Positions 32,829 to 61,858 of a DNA stretch of 64,000 nucleotides are shown here, in pieces (the first letter of the stretch is position 1; every line of letters begins with the position of its first letter). Origin of the DNA: Streptomyces sp. AM 4-1-1 (GTDB taxonomy: Bacteria; Actinomycetota; Actinomycetes; Streptomycetales; Streptomycetaceae); the NCBI RefSeq assembly GCF_029167625.1, contig NZ_CP119145.1, forward strand, positions 4,092,001 through 4,156,000, in the 5' to 3' direction. The notes under the pieces were generated by a model. The model saw nothing but the letters and a program-made list of their open reading frames with translations. It made no database searches and was not told the DNA's origin. Made by a program: the position numbers and the translations under genes.

Positions 32829-34153
32829 AGCGGCAACTCCTGCTGTGCGTCGGTGGATTTGTTCCGTCCGCCCGTCGTCGGCACGGTGACCTGGGTGGCG
32901 TAACGGGCCGCTGGGGCGAGCAGGACCCAGCCCTCGCCGCCGCTGGGGCGGGCCGCCCGGACGTCGGTGACCTGGCGTCCCTCCGGCAGCTCGTCGGCGT
33001 ACTCCTCCGGCAGCCCCGCTCCCTCGGATCGCAGCGGGCCGGCCGGGGCGATCAAGCGCATGCGGGAGAGCAGGTCCAGCACGGCTTCGCGCAGGGCGTC
33101 GGGGTCTTCCAGGTAACCGCGCTGCCAGTTGCTGCGCTGCCCGTACTCGGTGATCAGCTCGGCCAGCAGCTCATCCACCACACCGTCCGGAACGGCGACC
33201 CCGACGACGAGGACACCCCCGGTCGCGGGATGTCCGGGTTCAGCCGGGCGGAGCCGCTTCACCAGCCTCTCCACCAAGAGCAACGCCGCCTGGGCGACCG
33301 TCCCCGTCCCCGGCAGGTGGAGATCGGTCAGCTCCTCCTCGGGGTCGACCAGGGCCACTCCCTCGGCCCGGATCTCCGTCTCCAGGCCCAGCAGTTCGAG
33401 GAACGCCTGGGCCTCCCGGCGCTGGCGGGTGCGGAGCCAGTCACGTTCGGTGTCGGTCAGTTCGTCGAGGTGAACGACAGGGGTCTCGACGAGCATCCGG
33501 CGCACATAGGTGCGCGGCCCTCCGAACCCCGGGTCCGCCGCCCGCCTGACCAGGTCGGCGCCGTCCCGCGACTGGGCGAGCGGTCCGGCCACGATGACAC
33601 GGGCGAGCTCCCGGTCGACCGTGATCAGCGCCTCCCCGTCGGCCTCCTGGGCGATGACGCCCACGTGGCCGTGGGTCTCGATCAGGACGCCCCACTCGAC
33701 CAGCTGCCGTAGCGCCGCGACCAGCGTCCGCTTCCCGGCCGCTCGTCCGGTCTCCTCCAGCTCGATGTCCGCGTCGGCCGCCGCGGCCCCGATGTCGGCG
33801 ACGAGCTGCGACAGCAGTACCTGCTCCGGCGCGGTGACCAGCACCGACAGGGCCAGAGCCAGACACGCGTAGGTGTGCGGGGTGAAGGGCGTGCCGGTGG
33901 ATCGTACGAGCCGGTGCCCCGACCGGGCTCCGAGCCCGGCCTTGAACAGCCGGGCGTAGGAGCTGTCGACCAGGAGGCGGTAGCCGAGCACTTGCTGGAA
34001 CCGGCCGCCCAGCCAATCGGCGTGCCTGCGGACCAGCGGAAAGAGGTCGGCGTGCGGGCCGTCCGATGTGACCAGCGGGTGTGCGAGCAACAGCCGTGCC
34101 GCGGTGCGGCGTTCGGTGGCCAGAGCCACGTCGTGGGCGGAGGGAAGTGTCAT
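32825..34153 (-). CDS. jetB: Wadjet JetB-like subunit (TIGR02678/DUF2398)
   Basis: 442 residues, matching the DUF2398 pattern (winged-helix MukE-like kite protein). Recognisable stretches are RRHADWLGGRFQQVLGYRL and the RLVRSTGTPFTPHTYACLAL segment. It bridges kleisin and SMC head. ATG 34153 lies 7 bp after the JetA stop with GGGAGATGA before it; the stop overlaps JetC. Confidence 0.92.
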   Translation of the reverse strand: MTLPSAHDVALATERRTAARLLLAHPLVTSDGPHADLFPLVRRHADWLGGRFQQVLGYRLLVDSSYARLFKAGLGARSGHRLVRSTGTPFTPHTYACLALALSVLVTAPEQVLLSQLVADIGAAAADADIELEETGRAAGKRTLVAALRQLVEWGVLIETHGHVGVIAQEADGEALITVDRELARVIVAGPLAQSRDGADLVRRAADPGFGGPRTYVRRMLVETPVVHLDELTDTERDWLRTRQRREAQAFLELLGLETEIRAEGVALVDPEEELTDLHLPGTGTVAQAALLLVERLVKRLRPAEPGHPATGGVLVVGVAVPDGVVDELLAELITEYGQRSNWQRGYLEDPDALREAVLDLLSRMRLIAPAGPLRSEGAGLPEEYADELPEGRQVTDVRAARPSGGEGWVLLAPAARYATQVTVPTTGGRNKSTDAQQELPL

Positions 34154-34160
34154 GGCGCGC

Positions 34161-35843
34161 TCATCTCCCGCTGCCGCCGACGGACGCGCCGTGCGACCGC
34201 GTGGGAAGCGCCTCGCTCCCGGTCGGCTCCGCTCCGCCGACCGAGCCGGCCGTCCTGTGGACCGTCGGCTCCAGGTCGTCCAGCAGCAAATCCCCGTCGG
34301 CCGAGCGCAGAAGCGTGCGCGCTCCCGCCGTACGGTGCACCGTGAGCCGGATGCCCAGATCGACGTCCTCGCTCCACGCCGCGTCCAGCCCGAAGCCCCG
34401 CTCCTCCTGCCCGTCCTCCGCGGTCCGCTGCCTGAGCTGGGCGTTCCCGAGCGCCGTGGCCAGCAGCTCCAGGAGCAGGCTGAGCGCCGCCGACGTGAGC
34501 CGTACGTCGTCGAAGCGGCCGGACGCGCTGCACAGCTCGTCCGCGGCGGCGCTTCTCTCGGCGGCCCGCTGACGCGCCGCCTCCCGCAGTCGTTCCTTCT
34601 GCGCGGAATGGTCCTCCACCGATGCTGTCCGGCCCCGCTGGGCGCGGCTGCCCCTCTCGCGCAGTGCGACCGGCACCTCGACCACCGGGCCGGTCCACCA
34701 GCTGGTGTAGGCGGGCACCACCTCGTCGGAGGCGGGCGGTATGCCCAGGTGGCGGGCGCCGTACAGCCCGAAGGCGGCGACGGCGATGTCGTGCGCGTCC
34801 TGCGGCGCGGCCTCGTCGAACCACCGGGCCAGCCGCAGCAGGTCCCGGCGCCGCGACATCTCGCCGGTGGCCGAGCGCAGCATCCGCTTGGCGTTGGCCA
34901 GCAGCGACTGAAGCGCCCGCAGGGTGGCGTCGCGCAGCTGGTCTACCTGGCTGCCCTGCCCGTCGGTGTCCCTGAACCAGCCCCGCAGCCCCTCCCAGTC
35001 CGCGAGCTCGCGACCCCGGCTGCGCTGCACGCGGGTCTCCGTACGGCTCTCGCTCCGTGTCGGCAGCCCGGCGAGCCCCTGCGCGTGAGCGTCCAACTGC
35101 TCCAGCAGGCCCGGGAGGTGGGGCCAGAGTGAGTCCAGGGCCGCCGAGATGCGGGGGGCGCGGAAGGACACGTCCTCCGTGATCGCCTCGACATAGTCCA
35201 GGAGGAGTTCCTTGAAGCCCTGGTACTCGCCGCCGTCCAGGTCGTACCGGGCGAGCACCTGGCCGAGATAGGCGTAGAAGTCCCGGACGGAGTCGGCGAA
35301 TCCGGTGAACTGCACGAACAACGTGCTGATCCGCTCCAGCCCGTCCTGCGGGGCGATGCCGCCCGGCTCTGCCACCAGCTCGGCCAGCTCCCGCAGCCCC
35401 CGCTCGACCAGGGCCAACAGTTCGTTGCTCACCTCGCGGGCGGCGTCGGCCTCGGCCAGCACCCCGTCGGCGTCCCGTTGGACGCGCTCGCCCAGCCGCG
35501 ACAGCTGGTAACGGGCCCGCGAACGCTGGTACTCCGTGATGCTGGACGCCTTCACCGTGTGGCTGCCCCGCAGCAGGTTCCCCCACTTCACCAGCTGTTC
35601 CAGCCGCACGGTGAGGGGGTCGGCGTCGAGCCCCGAGGCGGGCCCGCCGCCCTCACGCAGCTTCGCCATCACGTCCGGGACGGCCAGATCGGCCAGGAGG
35701 GTGCCGCAGAAGACCCGCATGATCGCGAGGTACTCCAGCCGCTCCGGCGCGCTGAGGTACGCGTACGCGTCGAGGCGGCGGCGCGTCTCGTCGGCGTCGG
35801 GTGCCGAGGGCGCGTTGCCGGGTTCCGGCGGTGTGCCGGGCAT
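34161..35843 (-). CDS. jetA: Wadjet JetA-like kleisin subunit (TIGR02677/DUF2397)
   Basis: 560 residues of the DUF2397 family, the kleisin (MukF-like) partner. Visible segments are YAYLSAPERLEYLAIMRVF at the start and FVQFTGFADSVRDFYAYLGQ in the middle. I choose ATG 35843 (MPGTPPEPG) because GGAGG lies 5-6 bases before it; ATG 35855, four codons upstream, overlaps that site. First gene of jetABCD. Confidence 0.9.
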   Translation of the reverse strand: MPGTPPEPGNAPSAPDADETRRRLDAYAYLSAPERLEYLAIMRVFCGTLLADLAVPDVMAKLREGGGPASGLDADPLTVRLEQLVKWGNLLRGSHTVKASSITEYQRSRARYQLSRLGERVQRDADGVLAEADAAREVSNELLALVERGLRELAELVAEPGGIAPQDGLERISTLFVQFTGFADSVRDFYAYLGQVLARYDLDGGEYQGFKELLLDYVEAITEDVSFRAPRISAALDSLWPHLPGLLEQLDAHAQGLAGLPTRSESRTETRVQRSRGRELADWEGLRGWFRDTDGQGSQVDQLRDATLRALQSLLANAKRMLRSATGEMSRRRDLLRLARWFDEAAPQDAHDIAVAAFGLYGARHLGIPPASDEVVPAYTSWWTGPVVEVPVALRERGSRAQRGRTASVEDHSAQKERLREAARQRAAERSAAADELCSASGRFDDVRLTSAALSLLLELLATALGNAQLRQRTAEDGQEERGFGLDAAWSEDVDLGIRLTVHRTAGARTLLRSADGDLLLDDLEPTVHRTAGSVGGAEPTGSEALPTRSHGASVGGSGR

Positions 35844-36131
35844 GGAGTCCTCCATGTTCGCGAGGTTACGTGGAGGGGGTGACAGACGGTGTGGGGTGGC
35901 TGGAACTGGTCGCGGGGCCACCGATGCAGTGCTCGGGTGAGGGCGTGGTTCGCTCCGGACCGGTGGGCAGCGGCGATGCGACAGCAGGGTGCCCGTGCGA
36001 CGACGGCGAGCAGGCGCGCGGTGCCGCGGTTCCGCAGTGGGGCGTGTAGACGCCGACGTGGCGGGCGAGCCGGTTGCGGGAGGAACTGACGCCCGCCCCG
36101 TCGTCCCCAGGGGCCGGCGCCGTCACCCGGG

Positions 36132-36920: not shown

Positions 36921-37212
36921 GTTCTGTCTCCATTTCGGCTGCGATGATCTGCTTGCCCGGCCTACCCAACGCCTTCGTCGGCCCGGAGCGACATGCATGG
37001 GGCCGTTCCCGACCGGGGCACGCCGTCACCCGAAGCGCTCAGCGGTCACGCTACCACGAGAAGCGTGTTGACGATGTAAACGCATTAAAGTTTTGCTTCT
37101 ACGTCCCGCTCCGTGTACGTTTGCCCTCGGGGTGCCGTCTGTCACGATGGACGCCCCCGCCACACGGGGAAGCAACAGGCCCTCTCGCGGGGCCGTACGG
37201 GGAGGCAGCGGG
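36921..37212. promoter_or_regulatory. Divergent promoter of the coiled-coil and kinase-helicase genes
   Basis: 292 bp with a marked AT-rich core at 37060-37105. TTGACG at 37068-37073 is a -35 candidate for the rightward gene. GTTGAC-N6-AACG at 37067-37082 has the same layout as the 17-bp block shared by two other island promoters, with a different N6. GCGT/ACGC arms flank it. Confidence 0.5.
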
Positions 37213-40200
37213 ATGAGCGAGGACGCCGGGATGATCGCGGGGCGGTTCCGCCTGCTGGGCCCCCTGGACTCCGGGAACATGGGTGAGGTGCACCGGGCCG
37301 AGGACCTGCGCGAGGCCGAGGACTCTCCCGCGCGTACCGTCGCCCTCAAGCTCATCCGCCGCCGTCGTTCGGGTGCGCTCGTGCAGACCCAGGCCGACCC
37401 GCACGCGGTGGAGAGGTTCGCGCGCGAAGTGCACATCATGCACCTGCTGAACCATCCGAACCTGCCCCGCACCATCGACGGCGGGGTGGACGAGACCAAC
37501 GACGATCTTCCGTTCCTTGCCATGGAGTTCCTGGACGGTCACACCCTCGACGTCCTGATCGATGACGAGGGGCAGATCCCGGTCTCCTGGGCCGCCGCCC
37601 TCGGGGTGCAGATGGCGGCGGCCCTGGCCGCCGCTCACGCCGCCGACGTGGTCCATCGCGACCTCAAGCCCCGCAACGTCATGCTCACCCGTGGCGGCGT
37701 GGTCAAGGTTCTGGATTTCGGCATCGGGCGCATCGTCGACGATCCCGACGGAACCAAACTGACCAGCACGGGCATGACGATCGGTACGGCGCGCTATATG
37801 GCGCCGGAGCAGTTCGAGGCCAGTCTCGTCACCCGTGCCGCCGACCTGTACGCCCTCGGCTGCGTGCTGCACGAGATGCTTCTGGGTGTCCCGCCCTTCG
37901 TCGGCAACACGCCCTTCGACTTCCGCGACAAGCACTGCAATCAGGCGCCCGCGCCGGTGAGGTCCGTCCGTCCGGAGGTGCCGGAGGCGCTGGCCCGCCT
38001 CGTGGACCACCTCCTCGCCAAGAATCCGGCTGACCGCCCGGCCGACGCCGTCGCGGTGCGGGACGCCCTGCTGCCGTACGTGAAGGAAGAAGCCTCCCTC
38101 CCCGTGTGGCAGGACTTCGACCCCGTGAAGCGGCTGCTCCGGCCGGCCGGACAGGCTGCCACGGAGGCCGGGCTTCAGCTCGCCGACCCAGCGGTACCGG
38201 AGACCGCGAAGCGCCCTCTGTCCGGCTCCGCCATGGATGTCTTTGGCGTACACGCCAAGCTCATCGAGGACTACCGCTCGTTCACCGAGGCGGGCACGGT
38301 CATCCGCGACGAGCGCGTGAAGGACTTCGTCAAGAAGGACCTCGACGCCAAGTCCCAGTGGCCCAACCCCTGGCTGTCGCTCAACCCCTTCTTCGCCGCC
38401 GCCGGCACGGTCGCCGAACTGGCCGCCCAGCAGGTCCTCCACGACGAGTGCGCGAGGATCTTCCAGGCGGGCAAGTCCGAGGGCACCACCGTGTGCGACG
38501 GCCGCCCGCTCACCCTGCACCGGCACCAGCGTGCGGCGATCGACGCGGCGGCGGCCGGCGTCTCCTACGTCCTGACCACGGGAACAGGGTCGGGGAAGTC
38601 CCTCGCCTACATGGTCCCGATCGTCAACCAGGTGCTCAAGGAGCGGCAGGCAGCCGGCCCCGACGCACCCAAGCGCGTGCGGGCGATCATCGTTTACCCG
38701 ATGAACGCCCTCGCCAACAGCCAGCTCAAGGAGTTGGAGAAGTACCTGCGCCACGGGTACGGCGAGGGCGCCGAGCCCGTCACCTTCGCCCGCTACACCG
38801 GCCAGGAGGACGACGAGACCCGGCGGAAGATCCGCAAGAACCCGCCGGACATCCTGCTCACCAACTACGTGATGCTGGAGCTGATGCTCACCCGGCCCGA
38901 CGACCGGGACAGCCTCGTCGCCATGGCCGAGGGGCTGAGGTTCCTCGTCTTCGATGAACTGCACACCTACCGCGGCCGCCAGGGCGCGGACGTTGCGCTC
39001 CTCATCCGCCGTGTGCGTGACGCCTGCCGCGCCGAGGACGTGCAGTGCATCGGCACCTCCGCCACCATGTCCACCGAGGGCAGCCTGGAACAGCAGAAGG
39101 CCGCGGTGGCCGACATGGCCTCCAAGCTCTTCGGCACTGTGGTCGGCCCCGAGCACGTCATCGGTGAGACGCTCGTCCGGGCCACGGGCGAGGCCCCGGC
39201 CACGGTGACCGCCGAGCGGCTCGCCCGCACCGCGCCCAGCGCCTACGCGGACCTCGTCACCGATCCCCTCGCCCGCTGGATCGAGACGTACTTCGGTCTC
39301 GCGGCCGACGAGGCGACAGGACTGCTCGTACGGCAGAAGCCCCGGAGGATCGAGGACGCGGCCACCGAACTGCACCGGCTGAGCGGTGTCGCGGAGGAGG
39401 ACTGCGCGGCCGCCCTGCGGGACACCCTGGAGGCCGGCTCGCAGGCGTACCACCCGGTCACCGAGCGCCCCCTGTTCGCCTTCCGGCTGCACCAGTTCCT
39501 GTCCAAGGGCGACACCGTCTACGTCACCCTGGAGAGCAAGGCCGACCGGCATGTCACCCGTGACTACCAGCGGGTGCGACCCGGCACCGACGGGCACGCC
39601 CTGATGCCGCTCGCCTTCTGCCGCGAGTGCGGTCAGGACTACCTCACCGTGTGGCGTACCGAGAAGGACGGCGAGATCCGCTACGAGCCGCGCCGCGACG
39701 CCGTCGCCACCGGCGGGCGGGCGGGTGACGGCTATCTCTACATCGACACCGACCGTTTCCCCGGCTCCTCTCCCTGGCCGCCGACCTCGGAGGAGGCCAT
39801 AGCGGACCGCAGGCTGCCCGAGTCCTGGCTGGAGATCGACGACCGGGGGCAGGAGGTCGTCAAGAAGTCCTACCGGGACCGGCTGCCCCGAGCCGTCACC
39901 GTCGACCCGTACGGAAACGAGGGCAGGGGCGAACTGCACGCCGCCTTCATCCCCGCGCCCTTCCTGTTCTGCCCGCAGTGCTCCATCTCCTACGAGCAGA
40001 CCCGCGGCAAGGACTTCGCGAAGCTGGCGACCCTGGACCAGGAGGGCCGTTCCTCGGCGACGTCGCTGATCTCCGCATCCGTCGTCCGCTCCCTGGACAG
40101 CGTGCCGGAGGCGGCCCTGCCCAAGGAGGCCCGCAAGCTCCTCACGTTCGTCGACAACCGCCAGGACGCCTCCCTCCAGGCCGGACATTTCAACGACTTC

Positions 40201-43200
40201 GTCCAGGTCACCGAGTTGCGCGGGGCGCTGTACCGGGCGGCGCTGGACGCCGGTCAGGAGGGCATCCCGCACGAGGAGCTGGCCACGCGGGTCGCCAACG
40301 CGCTGGCCCTCCATCCGGCCGTGTACACGGGCGAGAGCGACCTGCCGCCGCGCCTGGCGGCAGCCGCCGCGAAGACCCTGCGGGAGGTGATCGCCTTCCG
40401 CCTCTACCTCGACCTGGAACGCGGCTGGCGCGTGACCATGCCGAACCTGGAGCAGACCGGCCTCCTGGAGATCGACTACGCGGACCTCCCGTGGCTGGCC
40501 GAGCGGGACGACCGCTGGGAGCGGGCGCATCCGGCGCTGCGCCAGGCGGACGCCCCGCTGCGCACCGAGATCATGAAGGTACTGCTGGACGAGATGCGCC
40601 GGTCGCTCGCCATCGACGTGCAGTACTTCCGCGACGACTTCGACTCCCTCCAGAGCGCCAGCGAGGAGCGGCTCGTCGACCCCTGGCGGCTCGGCAAGAG
40701 CGACAGCCCCAAGGTCGCCACCGCCTACCCGCAGCCCTCCAAGCCCGGAATGGACCGCGCGGGACTGTTCCTCTCGGCCCGCGGCAAGTACGGCAAGTAC
40801 CTCCGGCGTACACACCGGGGGTTCCGCGACGACCTGGACAACGCCGGACTCCAGACGGTCATCGCGGACCTGCTCAAGGTCCTCCGCGACGCAGGAATCG
40901 TGACCGAGGTGTCCCTCGCCCCACAGAAGGCGGGCCACTTCCGCCGGTCCTCGCCGACCGCCACGGGCTACCGGGTGACCGCCGCCGCCATCATCTGGCG
41001 CGCCGGCACCGGGGAGACCGGCGCGCACGACCCGCTCACGCGTACGTACGCCAGTGGCGAGGGCCCCCGCGTCAACACCTTCTTCCGGCAGCTCTACCGC
41101 GAGGCGGCCGACGGTCTCTCCGGGCTCCTCGCCCGGGAGCACACCGCACAGGTCGACCCCCGGGACCGGCAGCGCCGGGAGGAGGACTTCAGCAAGGCCG
41201 ACCTGAAGCTGCTCTACTGCTCCCCGACGATGGAACTGGGCGTCGACATCTCCTCGCTCAACGCCGTCATGATGCGCAACGTCCCGCCCACCCCCGCCAA
41301 CTACGCCCAGCGCAGCGGCCGGGCCGGGCGGAGCGGGCAGCCCGCTCTCGTCACCACGTACTGCGCCACCGGCAACAGCCACGACCAGTACTACTTCCGC
41401 CGCTCGCACCGGATGGTCGCCGGAGCCGTCGCCCCGCCGCGTCTGGACCTGGCCAACGAGGACCTGGTCCGTTCGCACCTCCAGGCCATCTGGCTCGCCG
41501 AGGCCGGTCTCGTCCTGGGCCGGGCCGTCCCGCAGGTCCTCGACATCGCCCACGACGAGACCTCCGGCACCCCCGCTCCCGCCCTCGCCCTCCTCGACGA
41601 CATCCGGGCCGCCTCCCACGACCCCGGTGCCCAGGCCCGTACGGTGGCCGCCGCGCGGCGCGTCCTCGGCCCGCTGCTGCCCCGGTTCGGCGAGACGACC
41701 TGGTGGGACGAGCGGTGGATCGAGGAGGCCGTGGCCAAGGCCCCGCGCAGCTTCGACCGGGCCTTCGACCGCTGGCGCGAGCTGTACCGCACCGCCCTCC
41801 TCGACCAGTACGTGCAGAACAGGAGGGTTCTCGACCACAGCCTGACCGAAGGCGACCGCAGGCGCGCCTTCCGCCGCCGTACGCAGGCCGAGACCCAGCT
41901 CAACCTGCTCAAGAACGAGAGTGCGGACAACCGTTCCGTCCTCTCCGACTTCAACCCCTACCGCTACCTGGCGTCCGAGGGGTTCCTGCCCGGCTACTCC
42001 TTCCCCCGGCTGCCGCTGGCCGCCTATATCCCCAGCCCCGGAGGCCGCCACGGCGACGGGGACTACCTCCAGCGCCCCCGCTTCCTCGCGATCCGCGAGT
42101 TCGGCCCCGGCGCGCTCATCTACCACGAGGGCGCCCGCTACCAGGTCACCCGCATCCAGCTCCCGCCGGACTCCACCGGCGACATCTCCACCGGCGAGGC
42201 GCGTCGCTGCGCCCACTGCGGCTACCTGGACGACCCCGAACAGCGCCGGGACACCTGCGAGATGTGTGACAAGCCACTGGGCGCGCCCACCTACGGCCTC
42301 CTGCACCTGCACACCGTCTTCACCCAGCGCCGCGAGCGGATCTCCTCCGACGAGGAGGAGCGCCGCCGGGCGGGCTACCGGCTGGAGACGTCGTACCGCT
42401 TCCGGCGGCACGGCTCCCGCACGGGGCGCCAGGACGCGCGCGCGGCGGACGCCGCCGGAGGGCTCGCCACACTCACCTACGGCGACTCCGCCACGGTCCG
42501 GATCACCAACGTCGGCAGGCTCCGCGCCAAGGACAACGAGCCGCCCGGTTACTGGCTCGACCCGGCTGACGGACGGTGGCTGAACGAGCGCGACGCCTCC
42601 GACGCGTCGGGCGACTCCAGCGAGATGCCCGTCGTCGACGCGAACGGCAAGGAGAAGCGCCGCAAGAAGAGGGTCATCCCGTTCGTCGAGGACCGCCGCA
42701 ACATCCTGGTCCTCACTCTGGACGAGCCGCTGCCCGAGCAGGTCGCCCTGACCCTCATGTACGCCCTGGAGCGCGGCATCGAGACCGCCTTCGAGCTGGA
42801 GGACTCCGAGCTGACCAGCGAGCTGCTGCCACCGGCCGACGGCTCGCGCGACCGGCTGCTGTTCACCGAGGCGGCGGAGGGCGGCGCCGGTGTCCTGCGC
42901 CGTCTCCAGGCCGAACCGGACGCCCTCGCGGAGGCCGCCCGGCAGGCTCTGGCCCTCTGCCACTTCGACGAGCTCGGCGTGGACGAGGCCGGGCCGGGCT
43001 CCGAGCGCCCCTGCGCGCGAGGCTGCTACGACTGCCTGCTCACCTACGGCAACCAGCTGCACCACGGCGCGATCAACCGCCACGACGTGGCCGACCTGCT
43101 GGTGCGGCTCGCGTCCGCCGTGGCGACGAGAGAGAAGCGCGGGGAGAGCACCACGGAGCAGCACCTCAGGCTCACGACCGCCACCAGCACCGCCTCGGCC

Positions 43201-43551
43201 ACCGGCTCCGCCGCCCCCACACCGGCCGCCGAGCCCGGCAGCGGTCCGGGCGGTGCCCTGACCCCGGTCGAAAGGCAGTTCCTGGACTGGCTCAGGGACC
43301 ACGGTCTGCGGCTTCCCGACGAGGCGGCGGTCACCGTCCCGGAGGCGCACGCCCGCCCCGACTTCGTCTACCGGATGCCCGGGGTCAGGCTCGCCGTCTT
43401 CGTCGGGGGCGAGGACGACCCGGCCCGGGACGAGGATGCCGAGGACCGGCTCTTCCTCGCCCGCTGGGACGTGATCCGCTTCCCGGAGGGGGGAGACTGG
43501 GAAGCCATCGCGGCCGAGCACGCCCGCTACTTCGGCCGGGGCTCGTCCTGA
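37213..43551 (+). CDS. Ser/Thr kinase - DExH helicase - DUF1998 (MZB) fusion with nuclease-like C-terminus
   Basis: 2112 residues. Residues ~7-285 are a Hanks-type kinase: Gly loop LGPLDSGNMGEVH, VALK lysine near 46, HRDLKPRN near 148-155, DFG near 168, APEQF. Residues ~430-1420 are a superfamily 2 helicase: Walker A GTGSGKS near 457, DELH near 581, SAT in GTSATMS and motif VI QRSGRAGRSGQ near 1365. Paired cysteines (CRECGQ, FCPQCS, CAHC...CEMC near 1665-1686) and ARGCYDC near 1933 mark the DUF1998/MrfA zinc domain. The tail (~2030-2105: RPDFVY, VRLAVFVGG, WDVIRFP) resembles a DUF559/Vsr-type nuclease fold. ATG 37213 follows GGAGG. Related helicases: MrfA, DrmB, DruE. First gene of a three-gene rightward set. 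Confidence 0.9.
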   Translation: MSEDAGMIAGRFRLLGPLDSGNMGEVHRAEDLREAEDSPARTVALKLIRRRRSGALVQTQADPHAVERFAREVHIMHLLNHPNLPRTIDGGVDETNDDLPFLAMEFLDGHTLDVLIDDEGQIPVSWAAALGVQMAAALAAAHAADVVHRDLKPRNVMLTRGGVVKVLDFGIGRIVDDPDGTKLTSTGMTIGTARYMAPEQFEASLVTRAADLYALGCVLHEMLLGVPPFVGNTPFDFRDKHCNQAPAPVRSVRPEVPEALARLVDHLLAKNPADRPADAVAVRDALLPYVKEEASLPVWQDFDPVKRLLRPAGQAATEAGLQLADPAVPETAKRPLSGSAMDVFGVHAKLIEDYRSFTEAGTVIRDERVKDFVKKDLDAKSQWPNPWLSLNPFFAAAGTVAELAAQQVLHDECARIFQAGKSEGTTVCDGRPLTLHRHQRAAIDAAAAGVSYVLTTGTGSGKSLAYMVPIVNQVLKERQAAGPDAPKRVRAIIVYPMNALANSQLKELEKYLRHGYGEGAEPVTFARYTGQEDDETRRKIRKNPPDILLTNYVMLELMLTRPDDRDSLVAMAEGLRFLVFDELHTYRGRQGADVALLIRRVRDACRAEDVQCIGTSATMSTEGSLEQQKAAVADMASKLFGTVVGPEHVIGETLVRATGEAPATVTAERLARTAPSAYADLVTDPLARWIETYFGLAADEATGLLVRQKPRRIEDAATELHRLSGVAEEDCAAALRDTLEAGSQAYHPVTERPLFAFRLHQFLSKGDTVYVTLESKADRHVTRDYQRVRPGTDGHALMPLAFCRECGQDYLTVWRTEKDGEIRYEPRRDAVATGGRAGDGYLYIDTDRFPGSSPWPPTSEEAIADRRLPESWLEIDDRGQEVVKKSYRDRLPRAVTVDPYGNEGRGELHAAFIPAPFLFCPQCSISYEQTRGKDFAKLATLDQEGRSSATSLISASVVRSLDSVPEAALPKEARKLLTFVDNRQDASLQAGHFNDFVQVTELRGALYRAALDAGQEGIPHEELATRVANALALHPAVYTGESDLPPRLAAAAAKTLREVIAFRLYLDLERGWRVTMPNLEQTGLLEIDYADLPWLAERDDRWERAHPALRQADAPLRTEIMKVLLDEMRRSLAIDVQYFRDDFDSLQSASEERLVDPWRLGKSDSPKVATAYPQPSKPGMDRAGLFLSARGKYGKYLRRTHRGFRDDLDNAGLQTVIADLLKVLRDAGIVTEVSLAPQKAGHFRRSSPTATGYRVTAAAIIWRAGTGETGAHDPLTRTYASGEGPRVNTFFRQLYREAADGLSGLLAREHTAQVDPRDRQRREEDFSKADLKLLYCSPTMELGVDISSLNAVMMRNVPPTPANYAQRSGRAGRSGQPALVTTYCATGNSHDQYYFRRSHRMVAGAVAPPRLDLANEDLVRSHLQAIWLAEAGLVLGRAVPQVLDIAHDETSGTPAPALALLDDIRAASHDPGAQARTVAAARRVLGPLLPRFGETTWWDERWIEEAVAKAPRSFDRAFDRWRELYRTALLDQYVQNRRVLDHSLTEGDRRRAFRRRTQAETQLNLLKNESADNRSVLSDFNPYRYLASEGFLPGYSFPRLPLAAYIPSPGGRHGDGDYLQRPRFLAIREFGPGALIYHEGARYQVTRIQLPPDSTGDISTGEARRCAHCGYLDDPEQRRDTCEMCDKPLGAPTYGLLHLHTVFTQRRERISSDEEERRRAGYRLETSYRFRRHGSRTGRQDARAADAAGGLATLTYGDSATVRITNVGRLRAKDNEPPGYWLDPADGRWLNERDASDASGDSSEMPVVDANGKEKRRKKRVIPFVEDRRNILVLTLDEPLPEQVALTLMYALERGIETAFELEDSELTSELLPPADGSRDRLLFTEAAEGGAGVLRRLQAEPDALAEAARQALALCHFDELGVDEAGPGSERPCARGCYDCLLTYGNQLHHGAINRHDVADLLVRLASAVATREKRGESTTEQHLRLTTATSTASATGSAAPTPAAEPGSGPGGALTPVERQFLDWLRDHGLRLPDEAAVTVPEAHARPDFVYRMPGVRLAVFVGGEDDPARDEDAEDRLFLARWDVIRFPEGGDWEAIAAEHARYFGRGSS

Positions 43552-43680
43552 CCCGCCCGCGCCCGGTCGCGGCTCCCGCGACCCGCACCGCCCCCCCCCG
43601 TGCCGCTTCCGACCACCCCGCCCGCACCGATCAACCCTCCCGGCCCGCGACCCGGCCGGGACCGCCCGGAGGAAGACCCG

Positions 43681-46602
43681 ATGACGCGCACCTACACCCC
43701 CGGCTCGCTGGTCACCGCCCGTGGCCGGGAGTGGGTCGTTCTCCCGGAGAGCGAGCCCGACCTGCTCGTGCTGCGGCCACTGGGCGGGTCCGACGACGGC
43801 ATCTCCGCCGTCTTCCCCTCGTTCGAGGAGGTGCGCGACGCGCAGTTCGCGCCCCCCTCACCAGCCGACCTCGGCGACCAGCGGGCGGCCGGGCTGCTGC
43901 GCTCCGCCCTGCGCATCGGCTTCCGCTCCGGTGCCGGGCCCTTCCGCTCCCTCGCGGGTATCGCCGTCGAACCCCGCGCCTACCAGCTCGTGCCCCTGCT
44001 GATGGCGCTGCGGCAGCAGACCGTACGGATGCTGATCTCCGACGACGTCGGCATCGGCAAGACCGTCGAGGCGGGCCTGATCGCGAAGGAACTCCTCACC
44101 CAGGGCGAGGCCAGGGGCCTGGCCGTCCTCTGCTCGCCCGCGCTGGCCGAGCAGTGGCAGGAGGAGCTGCGCACCAAGTTCGGCATCGACGCCGAACTCG
44201 TCCTCGCCTCCACCGTCTCCCGCCTGGAACGCGGACTGGACTTCGGCCAGTCCCTCTTCGACCGCTACCCGCACGTCATCATCTCCACCGACTTCATCAA
44301 GTCCACCCGCCACCGCGACGACTTCGTGCGCCACTGCCCCGACCTCGTCATCGTCGACGAAGCCCACACGTGCGTGGCCGCCGACGACACCGTCTCCACC
44401 CAGAACCAGCTTCGTTACGAGCTCCTGCGCCGTATCGCCGAGGACACCCAGCGCCACCTGCTCCTGGTCACCGCGACCCCGCACAGCGGCAAGGAGTCCG
44501 GCTTCCGCAACCTGCTCGGCCTGGTCCGGCCGGAGCTGGCCGACGTGGACCTGGAGACGGACCGCGGCCGGCGGCTGCTCGCCCAGCACTTCGTGCAGCG
44601 CAAGCGCGCCGACGTACGCCAGTACCTGACCAAGGAGAGCGGGCTCGCCGACGACAGCCTCACCGAGAAGACCGTCTTCCCCTCCGACCGCGAGTCCAAG
44701 GACGAGAAGTACAAGCTGTCGCCCGCCTACCGCGCGCTGCTCGACGACGCCATCGCCTACGCGAGCGAACGCGTCCAGGCCGCCGGTGAACAGGGCCGGC
44801 GCGAGGCCCGTATCGCCTGGTGGTCGGCGATCGCCCTGCTGCGCTCGCTGGTCTCCTCGCCCCGGGCCGCCGCCCAGACCCTCTCGACCCGGTCGGCCGC
44901 GGCCGTAGCCGCCAGCGCGGAGGAGGCCGACCGGCTCGCCGCCCCCCTGACCCGCGACTCCGCCGACAGCGACGCCCTCGAAGGGCTCGACGCCGCCCCC
45001 GGTGCGGAGACCGAGGGCGCCGGGGCCCGGCTCGCGGACCTCGCCGAGCGCGCCGCCGCCCTGGAGGGCCCGGAGGAGGACCTCAAGCTCGCCGCCCTCG
45101 TCCGGCATCTCAAGGCCCTCCTCAAGGACGGCTACCACCCGATCGTCTTCTGCCGGTACATCCCCACCGCCGAATACGTGGCGGAGCACCTGGCGAAGAA
45201 GCTCGGCTCGAAGACGGTGGTCAAGGCCGTCACCGGCAGCCTCTCCCCGCAGCAGCGCCTGGGCCGGATCGAGGAACTGGCCGCGCTCGCCGGCGACGAC
45301 CCGGCGGCCCGCCGGGTCCTCGTCGCCACCGACTGCCTCTCCGAGGGCGTCAACCTCCAGCACCACTTCGACGCCGTCGTCCACTACGACCTGGCCTGGA
45401 ACCCCACCCGCCACGACCAGCGCGAAGGCCGGGTGGACCGGTACGGGCAGAAGCGCGACAAGGTCCGCGTCATCACCCTGTACGGCATCGACAACGGCAT
45501 CGACGGCAAGGTCCTGGAAGTCCTCATCGCCAAGCACCGCCAGATCCGCAAGGACCTCGGCATCTCCGTCTCCGTCCCCGACGAGGCGTCCTCCGGAGTC
45601 ACCGACGCCATCGTCGAATGGCTCCTCCTGCGCGGCCGGCAGCCCGAACAGGAAGGGCTGTTCGGCGTCGAGGAGCTGAAGACCGTGGACGAGCGGGCTG
45701 CCGAGCTGGAGAGCCGGTGGGTCTCCGCCGCCGAACGCGAGACCGCCTCCCGCTCCCGGTTCGCCCAGCGCGCCATCCACCCCGAGGAGGTCGCCCGCGA
45801 GGTGGCCGCCGTCCGCGACGCCCTGGGCCGGGCGGACGAGGTGACCGGCTTCGTCCGCCACGCGCTGGAGGCGTTCGAAGCCCATGTCGTCGAAGCGGAC
45901 GACGGCACGGGCGACTTCACCGCCGAGGTCAGCGGTGTGCCCGCCGGGCTGCGCGACGCCCTCGCCCCGGTGGCCGGCGCCGACGCCGTCGAGTCCGGGC
46001 GGCCCGTTCCGTTCCGGACCACGGCGGCCGTGGCCCGGGGCGAGGCCGCCCTCGTCCGCACGGACCCCGTGGTCGGGGCCGTCGCGGCGCACGTCCTCAA
46101 CACGGCCCTCGACGCGAAGGTCCCCGGCCGCCGGCCCGCCCGGCGCTGCGGTGTGGTCTCCACGGCCGCCGTAACCGCCCCCACCACGCTCCTTCTGCTC
46201 CGCTACCGCTTCCACCTCACCCTGCCCTCCCGCCAGGGCACCCGCAGGATGGTCGCCGAGGACGCGCGCCTCCTCGCCTACGAGGGTTCGGCGAAGAACC
46301 CCCGTTGGCTGCCCGAGGACGAGGCGCTCGCCCTGCTCACGGCGAAGGCCGCCGAGAGCACCGACGACTACTTCCAGGAACGCACGATGAGCCGAACCTT
46401 GGGGCAACTGGGCGCCGTTCAGGACCACATGGACGCCTACGGTGATCGCCTGGCCGAGGAGCTGCACGAGTCCCACCGCCGGGTCCGGCGCGCCTCTGAC
46501 GAGATCGTGCAGGGCCTCAAGGTGACCGCCCAGCAGCCCGCCGACATCCTCGGCGTCTACGTCTACCTGCCCCCGATCACCGCAGACGGAGAGGCCGCCT
46601 GA
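43681..46602 (+). CDS. SNF2/HepA-type helicase, DrmD-like
   Basis: 973 residues. SNF2 motifs: DVGIGKTVEAGL (Walker A near 122-130), DEAH in IVDEAHTCV near 226, LLVTATPHSG, motif V TDCLSEGVNLQ and motif VI RHDQREGRVDRYGQ near 578. The sequence type (HepA-like with long C-domain) is that of DrmD in class 1 DISARM. ATG 43681 has GGAGGAAG seven bases upstream; it lies 129 bp after the kinase-helicase stop. The stop overlaps the methylase start by one base (TGATG). Confidence 0.9.
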   Translation: MTRTYTPGSLVTARGREWVVLPESEPDLLVLRPLGGSDDGISAVFPSFEEVRDAQFAPPSPADLGDQRAAGLLRSALRIGFRSGAGPFRSLAGIAVEPRAYQLVPLLMALRQQTVRMLISDDVGIGKTVEAGLIAKELLTQGEARGLAVLCSPALAEQWQEELRTKFGIDAELVLASTVSRLERGLDFGQSLFDRYPHVIISTDFIKSTRHRDDFVRHCPDLVIVDEAHTCVAADDTVSTQNQLRYELLRRIAEDTQRHLLLVTATPHSGKESGFRNLLGLVRPELADVDLETDRGRRLLAQHFVQRKRADVRQYLTKESGLADDSLTEKTVFPSDRESKDEKYKLSPAYRALLDDAIAYASERVQAAGEQGRREARIAWWSAIALLRSLVSSPRAAAQTLSTRSAAAVAASAEEADRLAAPLTRDSADSDALEGLDAAPGAETEGAGARLADLAERAAALEGPEEDLKLAALVRHLKALLKDGYHPIVFCRYIPTAEYVAEHLAKKLGSKTVVKAVTGSLSPQQRLGRIEELAALAGDDPAARRVLVATDCLSEGVNLQHHFDAVVHYDLAWNPTRHDQREGRVDRYGQKRDKVRVITLYGIDNGIDGKVLEVLIAKHRQIRKDLGISVSVPDEASSGVTDAIVEWLLLRGRQPEQEGLFGVEELKTVDERAAELESRWVSAAERETASRSRFAQRAIHPEEVAREVAAVRDALGRADEVTGFVRHALEAFEAHVVEADDGTGDFTAEVSGVPAGLRDALAPVAGADAVESGRPVPFRTTAAVARGEAALVRTDPVVGAVAAHVLNTALDAKVPGRRPARRCGVVSTAAVTAPTTLLLLRYRFHLTLPSRQGTRRMVAEDARLLAYEGSAKNPRWLPEDEALALLTAKAAESTDDYFQERTMSRTLGQLGAVQDHMDAYGDRLAEELHESHRRVRRASDEIVQGLKVTAQQPADILGVYVYLPPITADGEAA

Positions 46603-49600
46603 TGTCCGCCACCACCCGCAACCAGGTCTTCTCCGCCGTTCACACCGTCGGCGGCCTGCTCCCCGCCGACATGCTCGTCCGTATCTCGGAGAGCAAGGAG
46701 GGCAAGGACGTCCCCGGGTCCGGCCCCGCCGACTACCACGTCATCGGCCCCCGCCGGTCGGTCCGCGACGAGGCGGAACGCCACTGGGACTACCTCAAGT
46801 CGATCTGGCGCGAGCTCCGCGACAAGCTCCCCGTCAGCCCCGAGGCCGATCTGCCGGCGGACCCGACCGGCCTCGCGATCGGCCAGTGGCTCGAACCGCT
46901 CTTCACCGAGCTGGGGTTCGGCCGCCTGACGACGGTGGCCCCCGGGGAGTACCGGGCCGACAGCGACCCGGAGCGTGTCTTCCCCGTCAGCCACCGCTGG
47001 CACCATGTGCCCGTCCACCTGGCCGCCTGGAACTCCGTGCTGGACAGGCGCCCCGGAGCCATCGGCACCGTACCCCCGCACTCCCTGGTCCAGGAGTGCC
47101 TGAACCGCCGGGACGCCCACCTCTGGGGCGTACTCACCAACGGCCGCCAGCTCCGCCTGCTGCGGGACTCCAACGCCCTGGCCACCGCCTCGTACGTCGA
47201 GTTCGACCTCGAAGCGATCTTCGACGGCGAACTGTTCAGCGAGTTCGTCCTGCTCTACCGGCTGCTGCACGTCTCCCGCTTCGAGACCGGGGAGAAGGGC
47301 GCCCCCTCCGCGTGCTGGCTGGAGAAGTGGCGTACGGAGGCCATCGCCTCGGGCACCCGGGCACTGGACCACCACCGCGACGGCGTCCAGCGGGCCATCA
47401 CCGCACTCGGCACCGGTTTCCTGCGCCACCCGGACAACACCGCCCTGCGCGAGAACCTGGACGCCGACCGCTTCCACGCGTCCCTGCTCCGCCTCGCCTA
47501 CCGGATGATCTTCCTCTTCGTCGCCGAGGACCGCGACGCCCTGCACAGCCCGGACGCGAGTGCCGAGACCCGCAAGCGTTACGCCACATACTTCGGCTCC
47601 GCCCGCCTCCGCCGCCTCGCCCTGCGCAGGCAGGGGACGGCCCACGCCGACCAGTACGCGGTCCTCCGCATCGTCCTGGACGCGCTCGGCCGCGAGGACG
47701 GCCGCCCCGAACTGGGCCTCCCGGGCCTCGGCGGCCTCTTCGACGACACCGAGGCCGACGCCCCGCTGCGCGACTGCGTCCTGACCAACGCCTCCCTGTT
47801 CGAAGCGGTACGCCACCTCGCGCGCGTCCGGGACGAGAAGACGGCCCGCTGGCGGCCGGTCGACTACCGCAACATGGGCTCGGAGGAACTGGGCTCCATC
47901 TACGAGTCCCTGCTCGAACTGGTCCCCAAGCACAGCGCCACCGACCGCTCCTTCGAACTGGTCAACCGCCTCGGCAACGACCGCAAGAAGACCGGCTCCT
48001 ACTACACGCCGGCCTCCCTCATCGAGACCCTGCTCGACTCCACCCTCGACCCGGTGATAGACGACGCCCAGAAGCGCGGCGAGCGTGCGGCGGCGGAGGC
48101 GGGCGAGCCGGACCCGAGGGAGGCGATCATCCGCGAACTGCTGTCGCTGACGGTCTGCGACCCGGCCTGCGGCTCGGGTCACTTCCTGGTCGCGGCGGCC
48201 CGCCGCATCGCCAAGCGGGTGGCCGCGGTGGATGAGAACAATCCCGAGCCGCCCCCCGTGGCCGTACGCAGTGCGCTGCACAAGGTCGTCGCCCGCTGCC
48301 TCTACGGGGTGGACCTCAACCCGATGGCGGTCGAACTGGCCAAGGTGTCCCTGTGGTTGGAGGCCCTGGAGCCGGGAAAGGCTTTGGGCTTCCTGGACGC
48401 GCACATCAAGCACGGCAACGGCCTGGTCGGCACGACGCCGAGCCTGATGCTGGACGGCATCCCGAACAAGGCGTTCAAGGCGGTGGAGGGGGACGACGAC
48501 AAGTTCGCCCGATTCCTGGAGAAGCGGAACGACCAGGAACGCAAGGGCCAGCGCGGGCTGTTCGACGTGGAGCTCGACCCGAAGGTCTCCAACACCGCGT
48601 TCGCCTCGGGCCTGCGGAGCATCATCGCGGCCCCCTCCGATGAACTGCGCGAGGTGCGCGCCCAGCAGGCGGCGTACGAGGACTGGCGCGGGCAGGAGGA
48701 GTACGTCCACGCCCGCCACCTGGCCGACGCCTGGTGCGCCGCGTTCATGTGGCGGAAGACGAAGGACGCCCCTCCACCGGTCACCCACGAGGTCTTCCAG
48801 TCCCTGCGGGACCCGGAGGGCAGCGCGGCGCCGGAGGCCACGCACAAGGAGATTCGGAAGCTGCGGGACCGGTACCGCTTCTTCCACTGGCACCTGGAGT
48901 TCCCAGAGGTGTTCACGGTCCCGGAGAAGGCGGCGCAGGAGGGGAAGGCGGGTGCCTCGGGGGAGGGGGAGCCCGCGGAGGGGGTGGACCCGGCTACGGG
49001 GTGGTCGGGTGGGTTCTCTTGTGTGGTGGGGAATCCGCCGTGGGACAAGGTCGACTTCGAGGACAAGAAGTACTTCAGCGTGGTCGAGCCGTCGATCGCG
49101 GCCATCGCGGGCACGGCCCGGCGTACGAAGATCGCGGAGTGGGAGGCCGAGAACGAGCGGGCCGGGAACCCGGAGGCGGGACGGCGGTACCGGCTCGCGC
49201 GGCGGATGGTGAAGTCGACGTTCCTGTTCGCGGGGGCGTCGGGGGCGTTTCCGTTGTGTGGGAAGGGATTGACGATCAAGGGCGTCAACTCCCTCCAGAC
49301 GGACCAGCTGTTCGCTGAGCAGTTCGCGACGATCGCGGCGCCCAGAAGCCGTTTCGGCTGCATCGTACCGACGGCCATCGCGACGGGGGCAGGCTCTCAG
49401 TACCTGTTCAGCGACTTGACCCGGCGGGGCGCGGTGGCGGCGCTGTACGACTTCGAGAACCGGAAGCCGCTGTTCGTGGGGGTGGACTCCCGCTACAAGT
49501 TCTGCGTGCTGGCGTTGGTCGGCCGGGAGCTGCGGGAGCCTGCGGCGCGGTACGCGTTCTTCCTGGAGGACCCGTCGGACCTGGGTGACGCGGAGCGTGT

Positions 49601-50795
49601 GTTCGCGTTGAGCCCCGAAGAGATCACGCTCATCAACCCGAACACGGGGACGCTGCCGATTTTCCGGACGCGGCGGGATGCGGATCTTACGGTGGGGATC
49701 TACCGGCGGGTTCCGGTGTTGTGGAATGAGGGGGAGAAGGGGGGCAACCCGTGGGGTGTTGTCTTCAAGAACCTCTTCAACATGTCTGACGACTCAGATT
49801 TGTTTCGCACCCGGGAGGACTTGGAGCGGGACGGCTGGGAGCTGCACGGCAACGTGTTCTCGCGCGACGGCAAGCGGATGCTTCCCTTGTACGAGGGGAA
49901 GATGGCTCACCATTTCGACCATCGGTGGAACAGCTACTACGGCACGGGTAGCGAGGACCGTCGCCGGCTCAGCTTGGATGAGAAGCAGGACGCCGGTGTG
50001 GCCGCGATGCCGCGGTACTGGATCGCAGAGGAGGGATCCATCTCGACTGAGCGCAAAGGCAAGCCTGTCGATGTGCCAGGTGTCGCCGTGCGTTTGGAGG
50101 AACTCGGCTGGGAGAACCAGTGGCTCTACGGGTGGCGGGATGTGTGCCGCACTACTGATGAACGCACGGCCATCGCTGCGTTGTTGCCGATGAGCTCGGT
50201 GGGCCACACCTATCCTCTGATGATGCCTGGCGTTTCTGCCGAGCTCGTGGCGGTTCTTGCGGCGGTGCAGAGTTCTCTGGTTTTCGACTTCGTGAGTCGC
50301 CAGAAGATCGGCGGTATCCACATGGCGCTGATGACGTGGAAGCAGCTTCCCGTGCCGCCGCCAGGCGATATGGAGCGCCATGCGGCGTTCGTTGTCGCAC
50401 GTTGCAGAGAGCTTGTCTTCACAGCCGAGGACATGATTCCCCTCGCTCAGGACCTGGGAGATGACGGAGCCCCCTTCCTCTGGGACGAGTCCCGCCGCGC
50501 TCAGATCCGTGCCGAACTCGACGCCTACTTCTTCCATCTCTACGGCATCAGCCGCGACGACACGGATTACATCCTGGAGACCTTCCAGTCGGAGACCGGC
50601 GGCCTCAAGAACAACGAGATCGCCAAGTACGGCCACTACCGCACCAAGGATCTCGTTCTCGCCGAGTACGACCGCATGGCTGCCGCCGGTATGAGCCTTG
50701 CCGCGCCTCTCGTGGATGGGGAGAGCTACACCTCCACGCTCACCCCGCCGCCGGGCCAGGGTCCGCGTCACCCGGCCGAGCTGGCGGCTGGCTGA
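46602..50795 (+). CDS. Large N6-adenine DNA methyltransferase, DrmMI/Eco57I-like
   Basis: 1397 residues. SAM motif I VCDPACGSGHFLVAAARRI at about 518-536; motif IV VVGNPPWDKV at about 808-817; target-recognition and helical C-domains after ~1000 (AYFFHLYGISRDDTDYILET). The size and partner helicase match DrmMI of class 1 DISARM; a stand-alone type IIG-like enzyme or PglX relative is the alternative. Translationally coupled to the SNF2 gene. GC and codon bias shift slightly towards the 3' end (49700-50700 is less GC-rich), possibly because the specificity region was exchanged. Confidence 0.9.
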   Translation: MSATTRNQVFSAVHTVGGLLPADMLVRISESKEGKDVPGSGPADYHVIGPRRSVRDEAERHWDYLKSIWRELRDKLPVSPEADLPADPTGLAIGQWLEPLFTELGFGRLTTVAPGEYRADSDPERVFPVSHRWHHVPVHLAAWNSVLDRRPGAIGTVPPHSLVQECLNRRDAHLWGVLTNGRQLRLLRDSNALATASYVEFDLEAIFDGELFSEFVLLYRLLHVSRFETGEKGAPSACWLEKWRTEAIASGTRALDHHRDGVQRAITALGTGFLRHPDNTALRENLDADRFHASLLRLAYRMIFLFVAEDRDALHSPDASAETRKRYATYFGSARLRRLALRRQGTAHADQYAVLRIVLDALGREDGRPELGLPGLGGLFDDTEADAPLRDCVLTNASLFEAVRHLARVRDEKTARWRPVDYRNMGSEELGSIYESLLELVPKHSATDRSFELVNRLGNDRKKTGSYYTPASLIETLLDSTLDPVIDDAQKRGERAAAEAGEPDPREAIIRELLSLTVCDPACGSGHFLVAAARRIAKRVAAVDENNPEPPPVAVRSALHKVVARCLYGVDLNPMAVELAKVSLWLEALEPGKALGFLDAHIKHGNGLVGTTPSLMLDGIPNKAFKAVEGDDDKFARFLEKRNDQERKGQRGLFDVELDPKVSNTAFASGLRSIIAAPSDELREVRAQQAAYEDWRGQEEYVHARHLADAWCAAFMWRKTKDAPPPVTHEVFQSLRDPEGSAAPEATHKEIRKLRDRYRFFHWHLEFPEVFTVPEKAAQEGKAGASGEGEPAEGVDPATGWSGGFSCVVGNPPWDKVDFEDKKYFSVVEPSIAAIAGTARRTKIAEWEAENERAGNPEAGRRYRLARRMVKSTFLFAGASGAFPLCGKGLTIKGVNSLQTDQLFAEQFATIAAPRSRFGCIVPTAIATGAGSQYLFSDLTRRGAVAALYDFENRKPLFVGVDSRYKFCVLALVGRELREPAARYAFFLEDPSDLGDAERVFALSPEEITLINPNTGTLPIFRTRRDADLTVGIYRRVPVLWNEGEKGGNPWGVVFKNLFNMSDDSDLFRTREDLERDGWELHGNVFSRDGKRMLPLYEGKMAHHFDHRWNSYYGTGSEDRRRLSLDEKQDAGVAAMPRYWIAEEGSISTERKGKPVDVPGVAVRLEELGWENQWLYGWRDVCRTTDERTAIAALLPMSSVGHTYPLMMPGVSAELVAVLAAVQSSLVFDFVSRQKIGGIHMALMTWKQLPVPPPGDMERHAAFVVARCRELVFTAEDMIPLAQDLGDDGAPFLWDESRRAQIRAELDAYFFHLYGISRDDTDYILETFQSETGGLKNNEIAKYGHYRTKDLVLAEYDRMAAAGMSLAAPLVDGESYTSTLTPPPGQGPRHPAELAAG

Positions 50796-56129: not shown

Positions 56130-56185
56130 GCGTCCGTGACGTTGCGCCGTCCGCACGCCTCACGGCCGTCGGCGGACGGCGCCCC

Positions 56186-56806: not shown

Positions 56807-56942
56807 GAAGACCACGCCCCTCCCCTGTGAGGTAGCGCACACCACGCCCCCCTGTGTGGAGATTATGCGATGAACCAGTAAGGAAAGTACGGGTGCGGGA
56901 AAAGGTGGCGATGCGTTTTTCGCCCGGAACGGGAAGAGGACG

Positions 56943-61790: not shown

Positions 61791-61819
61791 GACTCCACCG
61801 TACACGCAGTTCGCCTGAC

Positions 61820-61858
61820 ATTCGAGAGTTGATACGTTGGCGATGTCAACAAGTATCA
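61820..61858 (-). promoter_or_regulatory. Methylase promoter with shared 17-bp block and TGATAC/GTATCA dyad
   Basis: Read on the minus strand, GTTGACATCGCCAACGT (61850 to 61834) holds TTGACA as -35, with TCGAAT (61825-61820) as -10 candidate at 18 bp. TGATAC (61830-61835) and GTATCA (61853-61858) flank it. The stop codon TGA of the upstream nuclease gene lies inside TTGACA. Confidence 0.65.

What the first reader, a model, noticed from the sequence alone, without database searches (positions are those of the whole stretch)
37213..50795. DISARM-like three-gene locus without separate DrmA, DrmB or DrmC
DrmD-like SNF2 helicase and DrmMI-like methylase follow directly after the kinase-helicase fusion, with the last two translationally coupled. 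Class 1 DISARM has drmD-drmMI-drmA-drmB-drmC. Here the fusion may replace DrmA/DrmB and its tail the DrmC nuclease. It may be an undescribed DISARM subtype or a separate restriction system.
Basis: partly seen in the sequence, partly recalled or inferred. Interest (0 to 1): 0.88.

Follow-up and report, generated by a model that had tools for sequence, protein, structure and literature searches.

The report
Kinase-fused ARMADA phage-defence operon in Streptomyces
This three-gene cluster is a phage-defence system of the recently named ARMADA type I kind, but with a protein kinase joined to its DNA helicase and a DNA-cutting domain whose active site looks lost, which suggests that signalling by phosphorylation has joined or replaced DNA cutting.

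Summary
The system is not DISARM. Gene order (YprA helicase, RapA/SNF2 helicase, PglX-like methylase), one-chain helicase plus DUF1998, and a Vsr-like tail match ARMADA type I (Bell et al. 2025 preprint, PMC12458937). All 62 loci with at least 7.5 kb behind the helicase, window included, carry both partners.

New against that paper's main text, which lacks the word 'kinase' (supplements not seen), is the N-terminal Ser/Thr kinase. The tree reads as one fusion within Actinomycetota. Its catalytic K, D, N and DFG residues stand in 145 of 145 fused proteins. In the sister clade 4 of 5 loci have a separate kinase gene divergently beside the helicase. In 61 related genomes, 8 of 8 same-genus loci have a kinase, 6 fused and 2 divergent.

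Within the fused clade the Vsr-like domain lost its D-D-H residues about twice; the window's copy lacks two of three.

Likely mechanism: a methylation-guided DNA-sensing helicase complex licensed by phosphorylation, as with PglW in Streptomyces Pgl. The identity is firm; the mechanism is inferred.

The parts
37213..43551 (+). Kinase-YprA helicase-Vsr-like fusion protein (2112 aa), ARMADA type I YprA (ArmC-like)
37225..38097 (+). Ser/Thr protein kinase domain (PknB-like); VAxK, HRDxKxxN, DFG, APE all present
38521..39072 (+). RecA1 / DEAD domain (TGTGSGKS, DELH, GTSAT)
39169..41112 (+). About 650-residue insertion between RecA1 and RecA2 (helical, beta-rich and CxxC parts), of the kind described for ARMADA/Druantia YprA proteins
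   Evidence: description in PMC12458937
41122..41337 (+). RecA2 / Helicase_C (QRSGRAGR)
42754..43038 (+). MZB / DUF1998 zinc-binding domain
43261..43536 (+). C-terminal Vsr-like domain with eroded active site (PD kept, second D is G, H absent; PDFVYRMPGVRLAVFVGG at 43357-43410); no Pfam match
43681..46602 (+). RapA/SNF2-type (BrxHII-like) helicase, ArmA-like; start ATG 43681 behind GGAGGAA
46602..50795 (+). PglX-like N6-adenine methyltransferase, ArmB-like (DPACGSG, NPPW); TGATG overlap with the gene before
37068..37081 (+). TTGACGATGTAAAC, candidate operator/promoter element about 130 nt upstream of the start codon (weak evidence)

Best explanation
A kinase-equipped ARMADA type I antiphage operon. 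Shown by sequence: architecture, operon, conserved kinase catalytic residues, eroded nuclease active site, and grouping of all three genes by the fused state. Inferred steps: (1) the PglX-like methylase marks host DNA; (2) the RapA-like and YprA helicases load on and move along unmarked or replicating phage DNA; (3) DNA engagement releases the N-terminal kinase, which phosphorylates itself and its partners (methylase, SNF2 helicase) and so licenses restriction, as proposed for PglW in Streptomyces Pgl; (4) in this lineage the helicase's own Vsr-like domain no longer cuts DNA and serves at most as a DNA-binding or structural part, so the block to phage replication comes from the kinase-switched helicase/methylase machinery. 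Identity as a kinase-fused ARMADA type I system: about 0.95. The kinase as a switch of the complex rather than a killer effector: about 0.5.
For: Operon content and order match ARMADA I. The helicase part is 52% identical to the unfused Nocardioides one over its full length. Both partner genes in 62 of 62 adequate loci, window included. Kinase K, D, N, DFG in 145 of 145 sequences (27 loci and 118 database proteins, some perhaps the same gene). Fused helicases need 4 label changes on the tree, read as one gain and three losses; fused kinases form one clade (98*). SNF2 and methylase genes of fused loci also group, 2 changes each. Separate, co-inherited divergent kinase in 4 of 5 loci of the sister clade. 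Same-genus loci with a kinase 8 of 8, or 7 of 7 without the window's genome. Patchy distribution, 9 of 61 genomes, in a defence island with Wadjet II and McrBC. Precedent: PglW K677A abolishes phage resistance (PMC4365076); ARMADA II defends in E. coli (PMC12458937).
Against: No activity was measured. ARMADA defence has been shown only for type II. The kinase's target is unknown. The kinase is not universal: of 16 named Streptomyces loci 12 are fused, 2 have the divergent gene and 2 have none (L049, L050), and the sister-clade locus L080 has none. Inside the fused clade P0101, P0117 and L050 lack it (for the first two only the protein record was seen), so it is dispensable in some. The eroded domain is still under purifying selection (dN/dS 0.15-0.73 in 8 pairs), so it may keep a role, even an unusual catalytic one. 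Intact nuclease residues in 15 of 42 fused rows show that the kinase did not simply replace the nuclease.
Confidence: 0.5

Rival explanations
1. The kinase is itself the effector: once the helicase binds phage DNA, it phosphorylates host targets and stops growth or translation (abortive infection), having taken over from the lost nuclease.
For: The D-D-H state changed about twice within the fused clade while kinase residues are invariant. PADLOC's PD-T4-6 kinase models score 276.5 bits on this domain; that PD-T4-6 is a stand-alone defence kinase is recalled.
Against: The kinase coexists with intact D-D-H residues in 15 of 42 fused rows and in the 4 divergent-kinase loci. E. coli ARMADA II is described as non-abortive (PMC12458937). 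Nuclease residues are also lost without a kinase (12 of 60), and the independent-pairs test has no power (4 pairs).
Confidence: 0.25
2. The kinase only tunes the system (keeps it off outside infection, or answers host signals), and defence is by the helicases, with the Vsr-like domain or a recruited nuclease still cutting.
Against: Second D and H are both missing in the window's copy; the three-gene operon holds no other predicted nuclease.
Confidence: 0.18
3. An undescribed subtype of DISARM.
For: The SNF2 and methylase genes are homologous to drmD and drmMI (DrmD 309.9 bits; DrmMI 201.4 bits); helicase and DUF1998 modules correspond to DrmA and DrmB.
Against: One-chain YprA, Vsr-like tail instead of PLD, no drmC, DrmD below the NCBIfam cut-off and in a separate clade. 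Four annotated DISARM loci show drmD, methylase, drmA in that order, some with IS elements between.
Confidence: 0.03
4. A decaying or non-defensive locus in which the kinase-helicase serves DNA repair or regulation.
For: MrfA, the closest solved relative of the helicase core, is a DNA-repair helicase (recalled). The nuclease site is eroded.
Against: All helicase, methylase and kinase motifs looked for are intact; dN/dS over 13 pairs is 0.03-0.37 in the helicase parts and 0.13-0.36 in the kinase; patchy occurrence and defence-island context.
Confidence: 0.04

Closest known systems
ARMADA type I (Bell et al. 2025 preprint, PMC12458937)
   Same: [quoted passage not shown] abundant in Actinomycetota according to the paper
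   Different: N-terminal Ser/Thr kinase, not mentioned in that paper's main text (the word 'kinase' occurs 0 times); nuclease residues lost in the window and in most close Streptomyces relatives
ARMADA type II (E. coli ArmABCD)
   Same: Homologous helicase, SNF2 and methylase set; shown to defend against phages
   Different: Type II has SNF2 and methylase first and a fourth RelE-GajB-like gene; absent here
DISARM class 1
   Same: Homologous SNF2 helicase, methylase and helicase/DUF1998 modules
   Different: No split DrmA/DrmB, no PLD nuclease DrmC; SNF2 only 28-29% identical
BREX type 2 / Pgl (PglW, PglX) of Streptomyces
   Same: A Ser/Thr kinase on a large multidomain protein works with a PglX methylase; kinase activity is essential there (PMC4365076)
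   Different: PglW has NERD and tandem kinase domains (PMC12839542) and is not described with a YprA helicase; no PglZ or PglY among the neighbours scanned; PglW model 45.1 bits against a cut-off of 990
Druantia III DruE
   Same: Helicase part homologous (PADLOC DruE3 351.8 bits), large inserted domains
   Different: No DruH partner seen; here the helicase is partnered by SNF2 helicase and methylase

Membership tests
ARMADA type I | YprA-like helicase with the DUF1998 canopy on one chain | tested here: met
   [not shown]
ARMADA type I | Gene order YprA, BrxHII/RapA-like helicase, PglX-like methylase | tested here: met
   both partners in 62 of 62 adequate loci, window included
ARMADA type I | No RelE-GajB-like fourth gene (which would make it type II) | tested here: met
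   Next gene is a DUF5753/HTH regulator on the other strand
ARMADA type I | C-terminal Vsr-type domain present (fold) | tested here: met
   [not shown]
ARMADA type I (trait described as typical, not what names the class) | Predicted ACTIVE Vsr nuclease | tested here: not met
   Second D is G and H absent in the window; the H-bearing motif is kept in 3 of 121 close sequences (query and 120 hits), D-D-H in 15 of 42 fused and 48 of 60 unfused tree rows
ARMADA type I | BrxA-like helical insertion after RecA1 | tested here: inconclusive
   A 650-residue insertion with helices is present; its likeness to BrxA was not searched on its own
ARMADA type I | Falls in the type I clade of the published YprA tree | not tested
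   The published representatives were not fetched; only sequence relatives found here were used
DISARM class 1 | Separate drmA and drmB genes | tested here: not met
   Single fused chain; the genome's DrmA/DrmB pair lies about 1.85 Mb away in another cluster
DISARM class 1 | PLD nuclease drmC in the operon | tested here: not met
   None among the flanking genes scanned; the genome's only PLDc_2 match is at C1:3173697
DISARM class 1 | DrmD equivalog score | tested here: not met
   309.9 bits against a cut-off of 610; separate clade
BREX type 2 (Pgl) | PglW equivalog | tested here: not met
   45.1 bits against a cut-off of 990
Druantia III | DruE with DruH partner | tested here: not met
   DruE3 351.8 bits, best stretch residues 435-1070. 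No DruH among the rows shown for genes 2 and 3 and the 10 neighbours; lists are cut at 25 rows, but a true DruH would rank first

The most novel reading that the evidence does not exclude
A bacterial DNA-sensing helicase-kinase: in Actinomycetota an ARMADA restriction helicase recruited a Ser/Thr kinase, as a neighbour or as a fusion, beside a working nuclease; in Streptomyces the nuclease was then inactivated about twice while the kinase stayed fully conserved at its catalytic residues. Foreign-DNA recognition is thus read out by protein phosphorylation instead of DNA cleavage.
Probability: 0.28. Interest if true: 0.82.

Novelty: new variant of a known kind. Interest (0 to 1): 0.62.

Why it matters
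Kinase-bearing forms make up most ARMADA loci seen in Streptomyces here (14 of 16 named loci; 8 of 8 same-genus loci of the 61-genome sample), yet databases mostly name the protein just 'protein kinase', and PADLOC's best model for its SNF2 partner is labelled DpdE. Two signals point to phosphorylation as part of how a DNA-targeting immune system works: conserved catalytic residues in every fused kinase examined, and a separately encoded kinase beside the helicase in most of the sister clade. The repeated loss of the nuclease site makes an open question testable: whether such helicases can defend without cutting DNA themselves.

Tried and rejected
DISARM subtype: rejected by the DrmD score, the SNF2 and methylase trees, and the lack of drmA, drmB and drmC. 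Completion by genes elsewhere: the genome's DrmA/DrmB pair sits in a cluster with Vsr, cytosine methylases and UvrD/SF2 helicases about 1.85 Mb away. Origin of fused and divergent kinases from one kinase: neither shown nor rejected (p-AU 0.117). Correlation of kinase gain with nuclease loss: no power, 4 pairs. Raised dN/dS as a mark of nuclease decay: not usable, because this domain has the highest value of the folded domains in 12 of 13 pairs, the five intact pairs included. Conserved operator upstream: the 14-mer is shared by few loci. BrxA, MarR and OB sub-domains: not resolved by whole-model searches.

Rows dropped: 5 of 89 loci (L033, L052, L060, L072, L090) for short coverage before the tree and nuclease counts. 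Only 18 of 120 homologous proteins entered the tree. Divergent or duplicate own-genome kinases and some fused ones were left out of the second kinase tree. In L141 the methylase match covers only residues 263-648. FastTree warned of long-branch joins among distant unfused rows, and change counts alone cannot tell gain from loss.
Full report
OBSERVATION. Gene 1 (37213-43551) encodes a Ser/Thr kinase, a superfamily 2 helicase with MZB/DUF1998, and a C-terminal tail without a Pfam match. Gene 2 (43681-46602) is a RapA/SNF2-type helicase and gene 3 (46602-50795) an N6-adenine methylase, coupled through TGATG. The helicase and methylase motifs looked for are all present.

NOT DISARM. The SNF2 protein reaches 309.9 bits with NCBI's DrmD model, whose cut-off is 610. 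It is 28-29% identical to four DrmDs from loci that show drmD, methylase and drmA in order. The best PADLOC model, at 1727.4 bits, is labelled DpdE but evidently represents this family. The genome's other DUF1998 matches are a 999-aa frame at C1:4.22 Mb, not examined further, and a DrmB at C1:2.276 Mb. That DrmB sits beside DrmA in its own cluster, about 1.85 Mb away.

THE KINASE IS THE NEW PART. Of the best 120 relatives in the protein database 118 carry a kinase domain (7992 proteins passed 1e-20, 120 listed). In the 89 loci examined (window, 8 plasmid records, 80 genome contigs) 27 are fused, all Actinomycetota except one MAG labelled Melainabacteria that branches inside Pseudonocardiales. 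Of the 16 named Streptomyces genome contigs 12 are fused, 2 have a divergent kinase and 2 have none. On a FastTree of 102 helicases built without the nuclease columns the fused state needs 4 changes, read as one gain on a starred branch (99) and three losses (P0101, P0117, L050). Kinases of fused proteins form one clade (98*), and the SNF2 and methylase genes of fused loci group likewise, 2 changes each. The catalytic Lys, Asp, Asn and DFG are unchanged in 145 of 145 fused kinases. In the sister clade, four of five loci (L075, L076, L139, L141; not L080) have a separate kinase gene lying divergently next to an unfused helicase, and its tree order mirrors the helicases'. It is 37-38% identical to the window's kinase (measured in L075 and L076); a single origin of the two is neither shown nor excluded (p-AU 0.117). 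In 61 related genomes, the window's included, 9 hold 12 loci: 8 fused, 2 with the divergent kinase, 2 with none. All 8 same-genus loci have a kinase, 7 of 7 without the window.

THE NUCLEASE IS GOING. Unfused relatives mostly keep PD...FVDGPxHD: 48 of 60. Fused ones keep it in 15 of 42, mostly outside Streptomyces. Within the fused clade the state changed at least twice, read as two losses. Among 121 close sequences (the query and 120 hits) the H-bearing motif survives in 3, and the second D is G in 9 (the window among them) and E in 1. Against simple decay: dN/dS of this domain is 0.15-0.73 in eight eroded pairs and 0.22-0.62 in five intact ones, always below 1. It is the highest of the folded domains in 12 of 13 pairs, intact ones included, so it does not by itself mark erosion. 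Against replacement by the kinase: nuclease residues are also lost without a kinase (12 of 60), and too few independent pairs exist to test the link.

MECHANISM. ARMADA type II blocks phages without killing the cell, and needs the ATPase sites of ArmA and ArmC, the Walker A site of ArmD and the NPPW motif of the methylase (PMC12458937). In Streptomyces Pgl, the kinase of PglW is essential and is thought to pass a signal to the PglX methylase (PMC4365076; abstract and section 8 read). By analogy I propose that DNA engagement by the helicase switches on the fused kinase, which licenses the methylase/SNF2 machinery. In this lineage output through the helicase's own nuclease is unlikely. The kinase as an effector on host targets is the main rival. 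None of this was tested here.

PRINT. No paper describing a kinase-bearing YprA or ARMADA defence system was seen in the listings, nor in the passages read of PMC12904381, PMC13192584, PMC12839542 (abstract and passages) and PMC13316683. The library holds open-licence papers only, and supplements of the ARMADA paper could not be opened, so kinase fusions might be listed there.

Noticed in passing
27301-35921: Wadjet type II genes on the minus strand directly upstream: JetA2 736 bits, JetB2 404.9 bits, an SbcC-like 1420-aa ATPase, and a further ORF at 27301-28683 that was not scanned.
   Followed up: partly
53152-61973: More defence-type genes downstream: an SMC/LmuB-like ATPase (53152-55599), an AAA plus McrC pair (56943-60157) and an N6 methylase (60132-61973), so the window is a defence island.
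   Followed up: partly
L008 and L006 (G000:C1:2255600-2284900): Another cluster of the same genome has, reading the translations, a Vsr endonuclease and two cytosine methylases; further along lie an SF2 helicase, a UvrD/GajB-like helicase, DrmA (831 bits) and DrmB (239 bits).
   Followed up: partly
37068-37081: TTGACGATGTAAAC lies about 130 nt upstream of the start codon; copies with 0-2 mismatches stand upstream of the L037, L042, L050 and L073 helicase genes. Possibly a shared operator or promoter.
   Followed up: partly
PADLOC model PDLC02853: This model, named DpdE, scores 1727 bits on the ARMADA SNF2 gene, far above the other DrmD and DpdE models listed: probably a mislabelled ARMADA component in PADLOC-DB 2.0.0.
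   Followed up: no
L010 (Nocardioides plasmid pNOCA01): A plasmid typed as conjugative carries drmA-drmB, a cytosine methylase, an unfused ARMADA I operon and an AAA/McrC pair in a row.
   Followed up: no
32-4657: The first 4 kb of the window have a strong strand bias (GC skew 0.29-0.31, AT skew -0.35 to -0.39) under a long open frame of 1541 aa.
   Followed up: no
kinase versus helicase trees: The L009/L085 group lies outside the main Streptomyces group in the helicase tree but inside it in the kinase tree, which hints that the kinase part has been exchanged between fused proteins.
   Followed up: no
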